From the IMG/VR virus record IMGVR_UViG_3300032893_000205, positions 1-33,983 of that record: a DNA stretch of 33,983 nucleotides. One strand, given 5' to 3'. The translations under genes and the position numbers were made by a program. The notes beneath the pieces were generated by a model, which searched no databases, was not told where the DNA came from, and saw only the letters and a list, made by a program, of their open reading frames with translations. The DNA comes from a virus. Below, piece after piece: positions 3,189-8,792 of this stretch. The stretch's first letter is position 1. Each line of letters begins with the position of its first letter.

Positions 3189-4010
3189 ATGTACGCAAAG
3201 CTCTTCACGTCGATCTATCAGGGCACCCTTCGAGGAAACTCTCATGGCTTGCTGGTCTTCACAAATCTGCTGGCGCATGCCGACAAAGACGGCTTGGTGG
3301 ACATTCACCCGAAGGCCATTGCTGAAGAAGTGGGGCTTTCGATAGACGAAGTTAAGGCCTCTCTTCTAGTGCTTGAGTCACCAGATGATGAGTCAAGAAG
3401 TCCTGAAGAGCAAGGCCGACGCATCGTTCGGATGGATGAACACCGGGCGTGGGGATGGCGAGTTGTGAATTACGTCAAATACCGGGCAATCCGCAATGAG
3501 GAAGACCGACGCGAACAGAACCGAGCCTCTCAAGAGAGATGGAGGGAGAAAAATAAGCCGCCGTCAGCCACAGTAAGCCAAGCTAAGCCAAAGAAAGCCC
3601 ATACAGAGGAAGAGGCAGATGCAGAGGCATTAAAAGACATAGCACCTACGGTGCTTATCGGCGGAGCCGATGCCTACCGTGTCCCAGACTGCCCTTATCA
3701 AGACCTTCTAGACATCTATCACCAAGAGTGTCCAGCCATGAGCCGAGTGCTTGTTATGAGCTCGATGCGCCAGAAACATCTCATGGCTCGATGGCGTCAG
3801 GTATGCGCAGAGGACAAACTAGACAAATCTGCCGCGCTCGACTGGTTCAGGTGGTACTTCCAAACAGCGGGTAAATCGAAGTTCCTGACCGGCTGCGCTA
3901 GAGGGAATGGAGATAGGGCTTGGAAGGCAGATTTTGAATGGTTAGTTAACGGCGGAAACTTCGCCAAGGTGGTCGAAGGTCGCTACAGCAACGAAAGGTC
4001 AGCAGCATGA
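3189..4010 (+). CDS. Phage replication organiser protein (O/DnaT-like)
   Basis: 273 residues. The N-terminal 100 residues look like a winged-helix region (LLVFTNLLAHADKDGLVDIH, then IAEEVGLSIDEVKASL) ending in a VVNYVKYRAIRN segment. A charged linker follows. The C-terminal domain shows W(Q/R)xxFxxAGKSKFLTGCARG and AWKADFEWLVNGGNFAKVVEG, the typical ending of lambda-O/DnaT-like phage replication initiators that recruit the host helicase. The gene has its own promoter candidate. I see no internal iteron cluster, so the origin is not identified. Family assignment by pattern is fairly secure, the exact mechanism is not. Confidence 0.75.
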   Translation: MYAKLFTSIYQGTLRGNSHGLLVFTNLLAHADKDGLVDIHPKAIAEEVGLSIDEVKASLLVLESPDDESRSPEEQGRRIVRMDEHRAWGWRVVNYVKYRAIRNEEDRREQNRASQERWREKNKPPSATVSQAKPKKAHTEEEADAEALKDIAPTVLIGGADAYRVPDCPYQDLLDIYHQECPAMSRVLVMSSMRQKHLMARWRQVCAEDKLDKSAALDWFRWYFQTAGKSKFLTGCARGNGDRAWKADFEWLVNGGNFAKVVEGRYSNERSAA

Positions 4011-4310: not shown

Positions 4311-4338
4311 TAGACTTTGCGCAAACGGTGTGTATACT
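4311..4338 (+). promoter_or_regulatory. Promoter directly before the Y RNA-like array
   Basis: TAGACT (4311-4316, four of six) and TATACT (4333-4338, five of six) are 16 bases apart. Transcription should begin near 4345-4348, which is exactly where the first conserved GTGGTGAAG flank begins. This fit between promoter and RNA 5' end supports a dedicated non-coding transcript that may continue into the Ro60 gene. Confidence 0.6.
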
Positions 4339-4347
4339 AAGTTCTGA

Positions 4348-4402
4348 GTGGTGAAGACATGGCGTTCATCTGCAAAATGTTCCCGCCTTGTTGCTTGTTC
4401 CC
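4348..4402 (+). ncRNA. Y RNA-like hairpin, module 1
   Basis: Conserved flank GTGGTGAAG (4348-4356) is followed by a stem of 4357-4363 (ACATGGC) with 4385-4391 (GCCTTGT). Six of seven positions pair; the fourth is U.U. The 21-base loop begins GTTCATC, as in module 2. Five bases then lead to GTTCCC (4397-4402). An outer helix is possible: G4350-C4402 and G4351-C4401, U4352 bulged, then G4353-C4400 and two A-U pairs. A terminal stem with one bulged pyrimidine recalls the Ro60-binding stem of known Y RNAs. That equivalence is inference; the repeat and pairing are seen in the sequence. Confidence 0.7.
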
Positions 4403-4415
4403 TCAAAAGTTTCGC

Positions 4416-4472
4416 GTGGTGAAGTTGTCCGGTTCATCTTTGGTATTTGACTCCCGGTCAACGTTTGTTCCC
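4416..4472 (+). ncRNA. Y RNA-like hairpin, module 2
   Basis: Same architecture as module 1, starting 68 bases further on. Flank GTGGTGAAG (4416-4424) is identical. The stem is 4425-4431 (TTGTCCG) with 4455-4461 (CGGTCAA); again the fourth position is U.U. The stem sequence differs at most positions from module 1 yet still pairs, which is compensatory covariation within the window. The loop starts with the same GTTCATCT. A five-base spacer precedes GTTCCC (4467-4472). The same outer helix with one bulged U can form. Confidence 0.7.
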
Positions 4473-4484
4473 GCTATAAGTTTG

Positions 4485-4605
<121 letters not shown>

Positions 4606-4650
4606 CAACATTTCTAGCGGCCCGCGCATTTATCCAATCCTGGAGAATTC

Positions 4651-5961
4651 ATGCGTACTAATACGGCCATCAAATACCCTGTCCCCAAGACTGCCGAAGG
4701 CGCGCCCGCTGCGCGCATCGATGCAGAACAGCAATTGCGACGCTCAGTCGCAGCGTGCATGCTGTGGGAGGACAACTTCTATGAATCCGGCACAACCATT
4801 GCTGATCGGATCAAAGAGCTGGTGCCAAAGTGCCGCCCTTCGTTCGTTGCTGCATGTGCTTATGAAGCGCGAACGGCCATGAAGCTGCGCCATGCTCCTT
4901 TGCTGCTGGTGCGTGAAATGGCACGGTATCCAGAGCATCGATTGCTGGTTTCCAAGCTCTTGCCGAGCATCATCCAGCGTGCAGACGAATTAACGGAGTT
5001 CGTCTCGATTTACTGGAAAGACAAGCGCCAACCATTGTCAAAGCAAGTCAAGACAGGCTTGGCGGCAGCATTCAAGCAATTCGACGAATACGCGCTGGCG
5101 AAGTACAACCGCGACGGAGCCGTAAAGCTTCGTGATGTACTGTTTCTATGTCACGCGAAGCCCGAAGACGACGCCCAGGCCGCGCTGTGGAAAAAGCTCG
5201 TGGATGGCAAACTGGAAACGCCGGATACGTGGGAAGTTGCCTTATCTGGCGGGGCAGACAAGAAAGAAACCTTCCTTCGTCTGATGGCTGAAAAGCAACT
5301 CGGAGCGCTGGCATTCCTTCGCAACATGCGAAACATGAAAGAGGCGGGGATTGAAGCTCAGCAGGTTGCTGAATATGCCGCATCGGTGAAGATTGATCGC
5401 GTGCTGCCATTTCGTTTTATCGCAGCTGCACGAGTTGTTCCGCAATGGGAGCATGTTATTGAGCCGATGATGCTTCGTGCCTGCGAAGGGCGCCAAAAGT
5501 TCACGGGAAAGACGGTGGTTTTGCTGGACGTATCGGGATCAATGGATTCTCCGATATCAGCAAAGTCTGACCTTCAACGCATCGACGCTGCATGTGGTGT
5601 TGCTATCCTTCTCCGTGAACTTTGTGGAGATGTGGATGTAATCACATTCTCTGAGCTAGTCGTGCAGGTTCCATCGCGGCGAGGGTTTGCGCTGCGAGAT
5701 GCGATCGTTACGAGCCAGCCACACCGAGGAACCTATCTCGGAAACGCGGTGGCGACAATCAACGCAAAGATTCCGCATGATCGGCTAATCGTTCTTACTG
5801 ATGAGCAAAGCGCAGACCGCGTGCCCTTCCCCATCGGTAAAGGCTATGTCATCAACGTGGCGAATGCAAAGAACGGCGTCGGATATGGTGCCTGGCAGCA
5901 CATTGATGGCTGGTCTGAATCCGTGATTGACTACATTCAGGCATGCGAAAACGCCCAATGA
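4651..5961 (+). CDS. rsr: Ro60 homologue (TROVE plus von Willebrand A domain)
   Basis: 436 residues, start ATG 4651 behind GGAGA. The N-terminal two thirds is the helical TROVE/HEAT-like ring (LRRSVAACMLWEDNFYESG, then FVAACAYEARTAMKLRHAPL). The C-terminal third is a von Willebrand A domain with an intact metal-binding site: D293-x-S295-x-S297 (LLDVSGSMD), T361 and D384 (VLTDE). Ro60 proteins bind Y RNAs on the outer face and ends of misfolded RNAs in the ring; in Deinococcus the complex directs PNPase. The protein is shorter than typical Ro60 (about 520-540 residues). The adjoining Y RNA-like array strongly supports the assignment. Role in phage growth is unknown. Confidence 0.92.
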   Translation: MRTNTAIKYPVPKTAEGAPAARIDAEQQLRRSVAACMLWEDNFYESGTTIADRIKELVPKCRPSFVAACAYEARTAMKLRHAPLLLVREMARYPEHRLLVSKLLPSIIQRADELTEFVSIYWKDKRQPLSKQVKTGLAAAFKQFDEYALAKYNRDGAVKLRDVLFLCHAKPEDDAQAALWKKLVDGKLETPDTWEVALSGGADKKETFLRLMAEKQLGALAFLRNMRNMKEAGIEAQQVAEYAASVKIDRVLPFRFIAAARVVPQWEHVIEPMMLRACEGRQKFTGKTVVLLDVSGSMDSPISAKSDLQRIDAACGVAILLRELCGDVDVITFSELVVQVPSRRGFALRDAIVTSQPHRGTYLGNAVATINAKIPHDRLIVLTDEQSADRVPFPIGKGYVINVANAKNGVGYGAWQHIDGWSESVIDYIQACENAQ

Positions 5962-7073: not shown

Positions 7074-7398
7074 ACAACTCGACCCACAGAAGCATCTAAA
7101 AAGAATGTGGGAAACAGCCCCAAAGCTCGCAAAGGCAAAAGCTGAGAGAGTTTATATGGAGGAATACAGAAAAACGCTCAAGGCCATGCTAATGAAACAG
7201 AGCCCTGCCAAAAGCTCAGCAGAACAAGAAAGAGACGCCTACGCTCATGACGACTACAAATCCCATCTAGACGGCCTTAGAGTGGCTGTGGAGGCCGAAG
7301 AATTACTTAGGTGGAGGATGGTGACAGATCAGGCCTCTGTAGAGGTCTGGAGGTCTACGGAAGCTAGTAATAGGGCGATGGATCGAGCGACGAAGTGA
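7066..7398 (+). CDS. Conserved phage protein upstream of ninG (110 aa)
   Basis: An all-helical, charged protein: LKRMWETAPKLAKAKAERVY, then EEYRKTLKAMLMKQ, then LRVAVEAEELLRWRMVTDQ, and VEVWRSTEASNRAMDRATK at the end. I recognise this overall pattern (AKAxAxRxYxEEFRK ... VEVWR) as a conserved phage protein of unknown function often found beside recombination nucleases. The end overlaps the ninG GTG start. Confidence 0.65.
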   Translation: MDEQLDPQKHLKRMWETAPKLAKAKAERVYMEEYRKTLKAMLMKQSPAKSSAEQERDAYAHDDYKSHLDGLRVAVEAEELLRWRMVTDQASVEVWRSTEASNRAMDRATK

Positions 7399-7958
7399 AA
7401 ACCTGCCGCATCTGTAAAGAGAAGTTCATCCCCTCAAGACCTTTACAACCCACATGCGGCTTTGAATGCCATCTTAAATACGCAGACAAAGTAATAGCCA
7501 AGAGCAAGGCAAAGCTAGCCAAGGAAGACCGCCGGCAGGACAGGGACAGGAAAGAGAAGCTAAAGACTCGCTCGGACTATCTAAAAGAAGCTCAATATGC
7601 TTTCAATACCTACATCAAAGCCAGGGACAAGGCCGCTGGATACGCATGCATTTCCAGTGGCCGCCCTCTTGACTGGTCGGGGAATGCTGTTGATGCCGGT
7701 CACTGGCGCAGTACCGGAGCCGCAAAACATTTACGCTTCAACGAGGACAACTGCCACGCACAATCGAAGCATGACAACCGCTATCTAGCGGGCAATGCGG
7801 TGGCTTACAGGGCTGGACTTATTGCAAGGATTGGCATTTCTCGCGTCGAAGCATTGGAAAACGACAACACATCAAAGAAATGGTCAATCGAAGAGCTAAA
7901 GTGTATTAAGAATAAATATCGAGCAATGACCCAAGCATTGCAGAAAAAGACCGATTAG
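7395..7958 (+). CDS. ninG: NinG recombination protein
   Basis: 187 residues from GTG 7395, which overlaps the stop of the gene before. It starts with a small zinc-finger (CRIC ... CGFEC), continues with a Lys-rich coiled segment and ends in the NinG core: YIKARDKAAGYACISSGR, NAVDAGHWRSTGAAKHLRFN and NCHAQSKHDNRYLAGN. NinG (Rap) of lambda acts on recombination intermediates, stimulating RecBCD-pathway exchange and cutting branched DNA. Together with the ERF gene it gives this phage its own recombination set. Confidence 0.9.
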   Translation: MKTCRICKEKFIPSRPLQPTCGFECHLKYADKVIAKSKAKLAKEDRRQDRDRKEKLKTRSDYLKEAQYAFNTYIKARDKAAGYACISSGRPLDWSGNAVDAGHWRSTGAAKHLRFNEDNCHAQSKHDNRYLAGNAVAYRAGLIARIGISRVEALENDNTSKKWSIEELKCIKNKYRAMTQALQKKTD

Positions 7959-7995: not shown

Positions 7996-8280
7996 ATGCA
8001 AGCATTTCAAGAAATCCTGGCCAAGAAACAAGCCGAAGAAGCGCGCACGCTCGATTGGAAAGATGTCCGGGTAGCAGAGGTCAAAGCATTCATGAAAACC
8101 CACGGGTTGACTCTCAAAGACATTCGAGAGCCCAAAGAACCAAAGCAAAAGAGCGACAAGCCTGACCTTCGCAAGACAGTCAAGATCAAATACCGTGGCC
8201 CGAATGGAGAGACTTGGACTGGTCGCGGAAAGCAGGCAAGCTGGCTCAAAGGTTTGAACAAGGAAGACTACAAGGTTTAG
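7996..8280 (+). CDS. H-NS-like nucleoid protein
   Basis: 94 residues. The C-terminal 22 residues carry the H-NS DNA-binding motif, Y66-RGPNGETWTGRGKQASW, with the T/S-G-R-G core that inserts into the minor groove of AT-rich DNA. The N-terminal part is helical (FQEILAKKQAEEARTLDWKD) and could form the oligomerisation region; total length matches short Burkholderiales H-NS proteins. A phage-coded copy may keep late genes silent, protect phage DNA from host silencing, or disturb host H-NS filaments. It has its own promoter candidate. Confidence 0.88.
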   Translation: MQAFQEILAKKQAEEARTLDWKDVRVAEVKAFMKTHGLTLKDIREPKEPKQKSDKPDLRKTVKIKYRGPNGETWTGRGKQASWLKGLNKEDYKV

Positions 8281-8470: not shown

Positions 8471-8509
8471 CAACGGCTCACAGGCGATGCATACCCTGTC
8501 GAGCCGTTG
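8471..8509 (+). promoter_or_regulatory. Long leader hairpin before the GroES-like gene
   Basis: CAACGGCTC (8471-8479) pairs with GAGCCGTTG (8501-8509) and ACAGG (8480-8484) with CCTGT (8495-8499), with only C8500 unpaired: 14 base pairs and a ten-base loop. It ends seven bases before the GGAG ribosome site of the TTG start at 8526. A T-rich stretch (TTGTTCTTT) follows at once, so it could terminate weakly, protect the mRNA 5' part, or control initiation. Confidence 0.65.
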
Positions 8510-8525
8510 TTCTTTGGAGAGAAGA

Positions 8526-8792
8526 TTGAAGCCACTTCAAGACTACATCTTTGTTGAACAAGACCCCGAGCGAGAATACCAAGGCGGGATCATCGTCAAG
8601 ACAAGTCAAGGCATCAAAGAATCGCAAACGCAACTCGGGCGATTCGGCACAGTCAAAGCGGTAGGCCCAGATGTAGACCAAGACCAACTCAAGCCAGGAA
8701 ATAGAATCTGCTATGGTGAGTTCGATTACCCAAAGACTCCAACCGGATATATCATCCTTCAAGACGCCGACGTTTGCGGAGTGATCGAATGA
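8526..8792 (+). CDS. GroES-like co-chaperonin
   Basis: 88 residues starting at TTG 8526, chosen because GGAG lies seven bases upstream and because the resulting N-terminus (MKPLQDYIFVEQ) matches GroES (RPLHDRV-IV). A longer ATG frame from 8487 would start inside the hairpin loop. Family features: GGIIVKTSQ in the place of the GroES mobile loop with its hydrophobic I-x-L/I-I-V contact for GroEL, then FGTVKAVGP and KPGNRICYG. It probably caps host GroEL to help fold coat or other virion proteins, as T4 gp31 does. It opens the late operon. Confidence 0.82.
   Translation: MKPLQDYIFVEQDPEREYQGGIIVKTSQGIKESQTQLGRFGTVKAVGPDVDQDQLKPGNRICYGEFDYPKTPTGYIILQDADVCGVIE

What the first reader, a model, noticed from the sequence alone, without database searches (positions are those of the whole stretch)
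4651..5961. Compact Ro60 encoded by a P22-like podovirus
An intact TROVE plus von Willebrand A protein with all metal-site residues (D293, S295, S297, T361, D384) lies between replication and ninG in an early operon. Ro60 with Y RNA can direct PNPase to structured RNA in other bacteria. A phage copy could alter host RNA decay, protect phage RNA, or act in stress during induction. It is about 100 residues shorter than standard Ro60, so part of the helical ring may be reduced.
Basis: partly seen in the sequence, partly recalled or inferred. Interest (0 to 1): 0.8.

Follow-up and report, generated by a model that had tools for sequence, protein, structure and literature searches.

The report
Phage Ro60 with anticodon-bearing Y RNAs
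A bacterial virus carries the RNA-binding ring protein Ro60 together with small partner RNAs, one of which imitates a rearranged transfer RNA complete with an anticodon arm, an arm missing from the usual description of these RNAs, so its target and purpose can now be tested.

Summary
Its model matches Ro60/Rsr over the whole chain, so the ring is compact, not truncated. Phage Ro60 is already known (Thermus phage phiLo structure 9L5Y; jumbo-phage and actinophage annotations).

The third carries a permuted tRNA domain: anticodon arm, T arm, acceptor helix capped by GAAA, D arm, with the outer stem inserted between D and anticodon arms. Such RNAs accompany Ro60 in nearly all related phage loci examined. 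Outer stem, T and D arms covary strongly. Of 105 distinct modules, 45 have an anticodon stem-loop in the exact canonical tRNA register (shuffles: mean 0.85, maximum 5). Anticodons vary, are enriched for U36 (37 of 53), and differ between near-identical phages. Bacterial loci have such arms too (6 of 21 units). Passages I read describe bacterial Y RNAs with D, T and acceptor arms only; the key 2014 paper was not available.

Most likely this is a Ro60-Y RNA particle presenting a tRNA mimic to a host tRNA-recognising protein: PNPase by precedent, anticodon nucleases as the bolder alternative. Function is untested.

The parts
4651..5961 (+). Ro60 (TROVE + von Willebrand A), 436 aa
4311..4338 (+). 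promoter-like site TAGACT-16-TATACT just ahead of the first Y unit
   Evidence: 1 found, shuffles mean 1.4, so not significant by itself; position only
4344..4407 (+). Y RNA unit 1, short, no tRNA domain
   Evidence: fold with the Y-stem pattern, z -1.55; model R1 hit 4340-4406, E 3.8e-4
4409..4474 (+). Y RNA unit 2, short, no tRNA domain
   Evidence: fold with the same stem pattern, z -1.49, and shared end motifs; not found by R1 at E<=1, so the least certain unit
4477..4612 (+). Y RNA unit 3 with permuted tRNA domain
   Evidence: Rfam YrlA partial match 4520-4580, 38.3 bits, below gathering 69; R1 126.8 bits, but this unit is in the seed; covariation in A3
4505..4521 (+). anticodon stem-loop of unit 3 (tRNA positions 27-43), loop CTGTTAA 4510-4516, anticodon GUU (Asn) 4512-4514
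4527..4543 (+). T arm GCAGG TTCGAAT CCTGC
4544..4559 (+). acceptor helix CGGGTC/GACACG closed by a GAAA tetraloop (the permutation joint)
4562..4577 (+). D arm GCTC AGTTGGGA GAGC
3189..4010 (+). replication initiation protein (O-like / DnaD-like), upstream neighbour
7395..7958 (+). NinG, downstream in the same run of genes

Best explanation
The locus encodes a Ro60-Y RNA ribonucleoprotein. Three Y RNAs are laid out just ahead of the Ro60 gene (anatomy shown by computation). By family precedent the paired Y stem docks on Ro60 (inferred). The third Y RNA displays a permuted tRNA domain: its acceptor ends are sealed by a tetraloop, so it cannot be charged, and the Ro-binding stem leaves from between the D and anticodon arms (architecture shown, consequence inferred). 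This domain would recruit or occupy a host protein that recognises tRNA folds. The best-precedented target is polynucleotide phosphorylase, giving a RYPER-like structured-RNA decay machine under phage control (inferred). The anticodon arm adds an identity-bearing surface beyond the D/T/acceptor mimic described for YrlA.
For: Protein fold. Y array upstream of Ro60. Conservation: full-length R1 matches at E<=0.01 in 18 of 18 viral sources, 63 of 67 and 55 of 59 (my counts from the tables; some sources are in the seed). Covariation: RNAalifold found Y stem, T arm and D arm unaided, 20 of 24 pairs with both-side changes; named structure 97.5% paired, 22 of 26 pairs with both-side changes, 0 of 500 shuffles, slid versions 40-48%. 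Anticodon arm: 25 of 65 units in the canonical register; 45 of 105 distinct modules in the wider set against shuffle mean 0.85, maximum 5; G26-A44 in 31 of 45 such units against 9 of 52 of the rest. PNPase precedent: passages of PMC8394870 and PMC7790460.
Against: No expression, binding or phenotype data. The PNPase tether is known only from other bacteria. In five distant phage Ro60 loci only 2 of 5 gave full-length R1 matches (none near the phiLo, Va1 and HGTV-1 genes). Unit 3 of the window folds no better than shuffles by energy alone (z -0.35). RF02553 scores near 40 bits also arise in genomes rich in tRNA genes (147 of 369 genomes with a match at E<=1e-3, only 2 over cut-off), so the Rfam hit alone proves little. 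Unit 2 is supported only by motif and fold.
Confidence: 0.55

Rival explanations
1. Anticodon decoys. The tRNA mimics act as competitive inhibitors or sponges of host tRNA-cleaving defences, or of other enzymes reading the anticodon loop; the anticodon is swapped as hosts change.
For: Anticodon arms are kept by pairing while positions 34-35 vary. Phages 10KY502B (X. citri) and Olaya (X. albilineans): 45-nt 5' flank identical, 128 of 130 bases of the 3' flank identical, but module anticodon UGU against GUU with changed T stem and acceptor helix. L041/L055: GUU against GUG with pairing-preserving acceptor changes. U36 in 37 of 53 against 58 of 175 ordinary tRNA calls, Fisher p 2.9e-6, relatedness not corrected. 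Hughes et al. (PMC7790460, passage) raise competitive inhibition of an anticodon nuclease by YrlA as a possibility.
Against: Two switch pairs only. About half of the units have no anticodon arm. Bacterial loci carry such arms too (6 of 21). The U36 bias could reflect loop structure or modification rather than decoy specificity. No nuclease was identified. In Salmonella, YrlA was not cleaved by the nuclease.
Confidence: 0.22
2. Ro60 works mainly as an RNA chaperone or quality-control ring; the Y RNAs only gate or stabilise it, and the tRNA-like part helps folding or modification of the Y RNA.
For: Many units near Ro60 are about 70-nt Y RNAs without any tRNA domain, including units 1 and 2 of the window; L001 shows only such units upstream.
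Against: Permuted tRNA units were found in 51 of 85 nonredundant upstream regions, and their anticodon arm is under pairing constraint, which pure gating does not need.
Confidence: 0.25
3. RNA-repair platform: Ro60 with a tRNA-like partner helps repair cleaved tRNA, as proposed for jumbo phages.
For: Proposed in PMC7824862 (passage); rsr lies in RtcB operons of some bacteria.
Against: No RNA ligase, kinase or phosphatase among the window proteins searched (not every window ORF was searched).
Confidence: 0.12
4. The tRNA-like pieces are debris or junctions of ordinary tRNA genes with no link to Ro60.
For: RF02553 gives many sub-threshold matches in bacterial genomes, which I read as tandem tRNA genes.
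Against: ARAGORN finds no tRNA in the window; the flanking Y stem covaries across 27 units; the order is permuted and sealed by a tetraloop.
Confidence: 0.02

Closest known systems
Ro60 of Thermus phage phiLo (PDB 9l5y, 9kop)
   Same: phage-encoded TROVE + vWA ring; phmmer E 4.7e-24, VIA-align Z 25-29 over residues 24-436
   Different: 502 aa by annotation against 436; about 24% identity; no R1 or YrlA match in the fetched stretch around the phiLo gene
Rsr of Deinococcus radiodurans (2nvo) with its Y RNA and PNPase
   Same: fold over the whole chain (Z 22.6); a Y RNA partner
   Different: longer protein; the PNPase link is shown there, not here
YrlA (RF02553), bacterial Y RNA
   Same: permuted T arm - sealed acceptor - D arm, stem pairing the ends, next to a Ro gene
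   Different: different Ro-stem sequence; below Rfam gathering score; an anticodon arm and canonical variable region in many units, against 'D, T and acceptor arms' in the description I read
Phage Ro60 genes annotated as TROVE, RNA-binding or Ro-like protein (crAss001, CcrColossus, Streptomyces and Gordonia phages)
   Same: homologous protein, 91 phage records
   Different: their Y RNAs are unannotated, or annotated as tRNAs
Proposed Y RNAs of Listeria phage CKA15 (PMC12282133)
   Same: Rsr homologue near abundant small phage transcripts, proposed to be Y RNAs (passage)
   Different: no tRNA domain or anticodon is described in the passage read

Membership tests
Ro60/Rsr protein | TROVE domain | tested here: met
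   PF05731 52.1 bits, cut-off 23
Ro60/Rsr protein | vWA domain with metal-site residues | tested here: met
   fold and residues present; the Pfam vWA profiles stay below their cut-offs
Ro60/Rsr protein | helical-repeat ring closed by vWA | tested here: met
   model aligns to Ro60/Rsr structures over nearly the whole chain, Z 19-29; the ring opening was not measured
Ro60/Rsr protein | binds Y RNA and misfolded RNA | not testable with these tools
   no binding assay
YrlA RF02553 | score at or above Rfam gathering cut-off | tested here: not met
   38.3 bits against 69, partial match 24-84 of 114; nothing at gathering in the window. So not filed under RF02553
Bacterial Y RNA (by architecture) | ends paired in a long stem, next to a Ro gene | tested here: met
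   compensatory changes through the stem; linkage
Bacterial Y RNA (by architecture) | permuted tRNA-like domain | tested here: met
   29 of 29 rotated modules read as tRNA by ARAGORN, but so are 1097 of 1450 with the anticodon segment shuffled, so this test is weak for that arm
RYPER (Ro60-Y RNA-PNPase) | Y RNA tethers PNPase | not testable with these tools
   no interaction data
Ordinary tRNA gene | contiguous cloverleaf with free acceptor ends | tested here: not met
   ARAGORN 0 in the window; order permuted, ends sealed

The most novel reading that the evidence does not exclude
Phage Ro60 loci hold a fast-changing repertoire of permuted, uncharged tRNA mimics with exchangeable anticodons. 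Held on a Ro60 ring, they act as decoys or baits against host enzymes that read anticodon loops, in the first place tRNA-cleaving phage defences; the repertoire records which tRNAs the hosts' defences attack.
Probability: 0.2. Interest if true: 0.88.

Novelty: new variant of a known kind. Interest (0 to 1): 0.62.

Why it matters
Why phages carry Ro60 is open. Finding the RNA partners, and that many are full tRNA mimics with a constrained anticodon arm that differs between sister phages, turns the question into direct tests: which host protein binds which mimic. It also identifies deposited phage 'tRNA genes' that are Y RNAs, and gives a covariance model that finds them.

Tried and rejected
ARAGORN on rotated (doubled) modules: 29 of 29 called, but 1097 of 1450 controls with the anticodon segment shuffled were called too, so it is not used as proof of the anticodon arm. 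The fixed-register test is used instead.

Minimum-energy folding of 4330-4650 and of unit 3 gave no significant stability (z 0.02; z -0.35); structure rests on covariation.

The promoter scan is not significant. The regular expressions for Y-unit ends were too strict. In one search, 3 of 68 units were dropped by eye for lack of Y flanks (L078 -605, L082 -561, L099 -58), leaving the 65. In one search, 47 of 180 candidate units were dropped by the flank filter. Alignment A3 holds 27 of the 29 units that have the arm (L090 and L014 -376 left out); its rows were chosen for anticodon pairing, so the anticodon pair counts are partly by construction. Some full-length R1 matches are tandem ordinary tRNAs (L018 4694-4830 overlaps two annotated tRNAs), so the locus counts are slightly generous.

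'Anticodon arms are a phage-only invention' was considered and rejected: 6 of 21 units in bacterial genomes have them in the 5-nt register. Some of these loci may be prophages; not tested. One of the 21 (L222) is not shown to be a Y RNA.

Full report
OBSERVATION. Window 4651-5961 (+) is an intact 436-aa Ro60-like gene with a TROVE domain over Pfam's cut-off and weaker vWA profile matches. It lies between an O-like/DnaD-like replication gene (3189-4010) and ninG (7395-7958) in a P22-like phage record of 33,983 bases.

PROTEIN. The AlphaFold2 model, from an alignment of ten proteins of the window and fetched loci (A1), has mean pLDDT 85.3 and pTM 0.78. It aligns to Ro60/Rsr structures over nearly the whole chain: the Trove-domain structure 9kop and phage phiLo Ro60 9l5y_A (Z 28.9 and 25.3), human 9nen (22.8), Deinococcus 2nvo (22.6, 405 residues, 3.8 A); the next, unrelated matches cover only the vWA domain at Z under 14. 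The protein is therefore compact rather than truncated. Close relatives are also compact. Ro60 homologues occur in 91 of 50,697 phage records, and 503 of 536 candidate viral stretches encode a relative. Phage Ro60 as such is known: PDB 9l5y, and a passage of PMC7824862 on jumbo phages.

THE MISSED PART. Upstream, at 4344-4612, lie three Y-RNA-like units. Unit 3 holds a tRNA in permuted order: anticodon arm (loop CTGTTAA, anticodon GUU), 5-nt variable region AGGTC, T arm, acceptor helix closed by GAAA, D arm, then the 3' half of the outer stem. Rfam's YrlA model matches only the T-acceptor-D part, at 38.3 bits and below its gathering score; ARAGORN sees no tRNA. Because RF02553 gives sub-threshold matches of similar score in many genomes (147 of 369 gammaproteobacterial genomes at E<=1e-3, 2 over cut-off), I did not rely on it.

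CONSERVATION. A covariance model (R1) built from 27 units finds full-length matches in 18 of 18 viral sources, 63 of 67 and 55 of 59 (E<=0.01; my counts; several source loci are themselves in the seed). Arrays usually mix about 70-nt units without a tRNA domain and about 137-nt units with one. In five distant phage loci, 2 of 5 match. RNAalifold, unaided, recovers the two-part outer stem, T arm and D arm, with both-side changes in 20 of 24 pairs. The named 26-pair structure is 97.5% paired, with 22 pairs changed on both sides, 0 of 500 shuffles as high, and 40-48% paired when slid by one to three columns.

ANTICODON ARM. Without choosing rows, 25 of 65 permuted units have pairs 31-39, 30-40 and 29-41 plus U33 and a purine at 37 when the variable region is set to 5 nt; all other settings from 0 to 15 give at most 5. 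Shuffles give mean 0.55, maximum 4; dealing the 3' strands anew gives mean 2.9, maximum 10. In a wider set, 45 of 105 distinct modules pass, against at most 9 at other settings from 0 to 12 (shuffles mean 0.85, maximum 5; redealt mean 5.5, maximum 13). Units with the arm also show G26-A44 (31 of 45, against 9 of 52 of the rest) and C48 (43 of 45). In 53 units (variable region 4-6) the inferred anticodons include UGU 10, GUU 9, GCU 9, UCU 3 and many singles; U36 in 37, A37 in 46, A38 in 48. U36 is commoner than in ordinary tRNA calls of the same loci (58 of 175; Fisher p 2.9e-6, not corrected for relatedness). In bacterial genomes 6 of 21 permuted units pass the 5-nt register, so the arm is not restricted to phages.

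SWITCHING. Xanthomonas phages 10KY502B (host X. citri) and Olaya (host X. albilineans) have an identical 45-nt 5' flank and 128 of 130 identical bases 3' of the module, but the module differs in anticodon (UGU/GUU), T stem (paired both times), acceptor helix and D loop. Contigs L041 and L055 differ at the anticodon (GUU/GUG) and in the acceptor helix, which stays paired. These are two examples, not a rate.

MECHANISM. Shown by computation: protein fold, array, permuted tRNA architecture, covariation, anticodon arm. Inferred: that Ro60 binds the Y stem, that the tRNA domain is the effector surface, and that the target is PNPase (precedent in Deinococcus and Salmonella; passages of PMC8394870 and PMC7790460). 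The anticodon arm is not explained by the PNPase model alone, which keeps the decoy reading alive; Hughes et al. suggested competitive inhibition of an anticodon nuclease as a possibility for YrlA.

NOVELTY. Phage Ro60 and phage Y RNAs are known in kind. A passage of PMC12282133 mentions Y RNAs in mycobacteriophages and proposes them in a Listeria phage. I saw no description of an anticodon arm in the listings of searches or in passages of six papers, but Chen et al. 2014 and the 2020 review are not held, so absence from print is not shown. I rate it a new variant of a known kind.

Noticed in passing
L013 3831-3898; L015 2769-2843; L017 2131-2198: Deposited 'tRNA-Thr', 'tRNA-Ser' and 'tRNA-Gln' genes of Xanthomonas phage 10KY502B, Brevundimonas phage Gurke and Caulobacter phage CcrColossus overlap Y RNA units found by R1.
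   Followed up: partly
L015 6345-6690; L016 6777-7034: Permuted tmRNA (RF04321, 57.7 and 57.9 bits, over gathering) downstream of Ro60 in two Brevundimonas jumbo phages.
   Followed up: no
window 8487-8792 and 7996-8280: GroES-like (Cpn10) and H-NS C-terminal-like proteins encoded by this phage.
   Followed up: no
L008, Ro60 frame near 5322: One in-frame stop where relatives have a residue; the contig may use a recoded stop, or it is an error.
   Followed up: no
L016 2792-2945; L017 2612-2764 and 2787-2915: Leu-type D arms; in L016 and the first L017 unit also a hairpin like a class II variable arm, but no anticodon loop: mimicry of long-variable-arm tRNAs (read by eye).
   Followed up: partly
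L019 4545-4625: Weak Y-like match (E 2.8e-4) downstream of the crAss001 TROVE gene.
   Followed up: no
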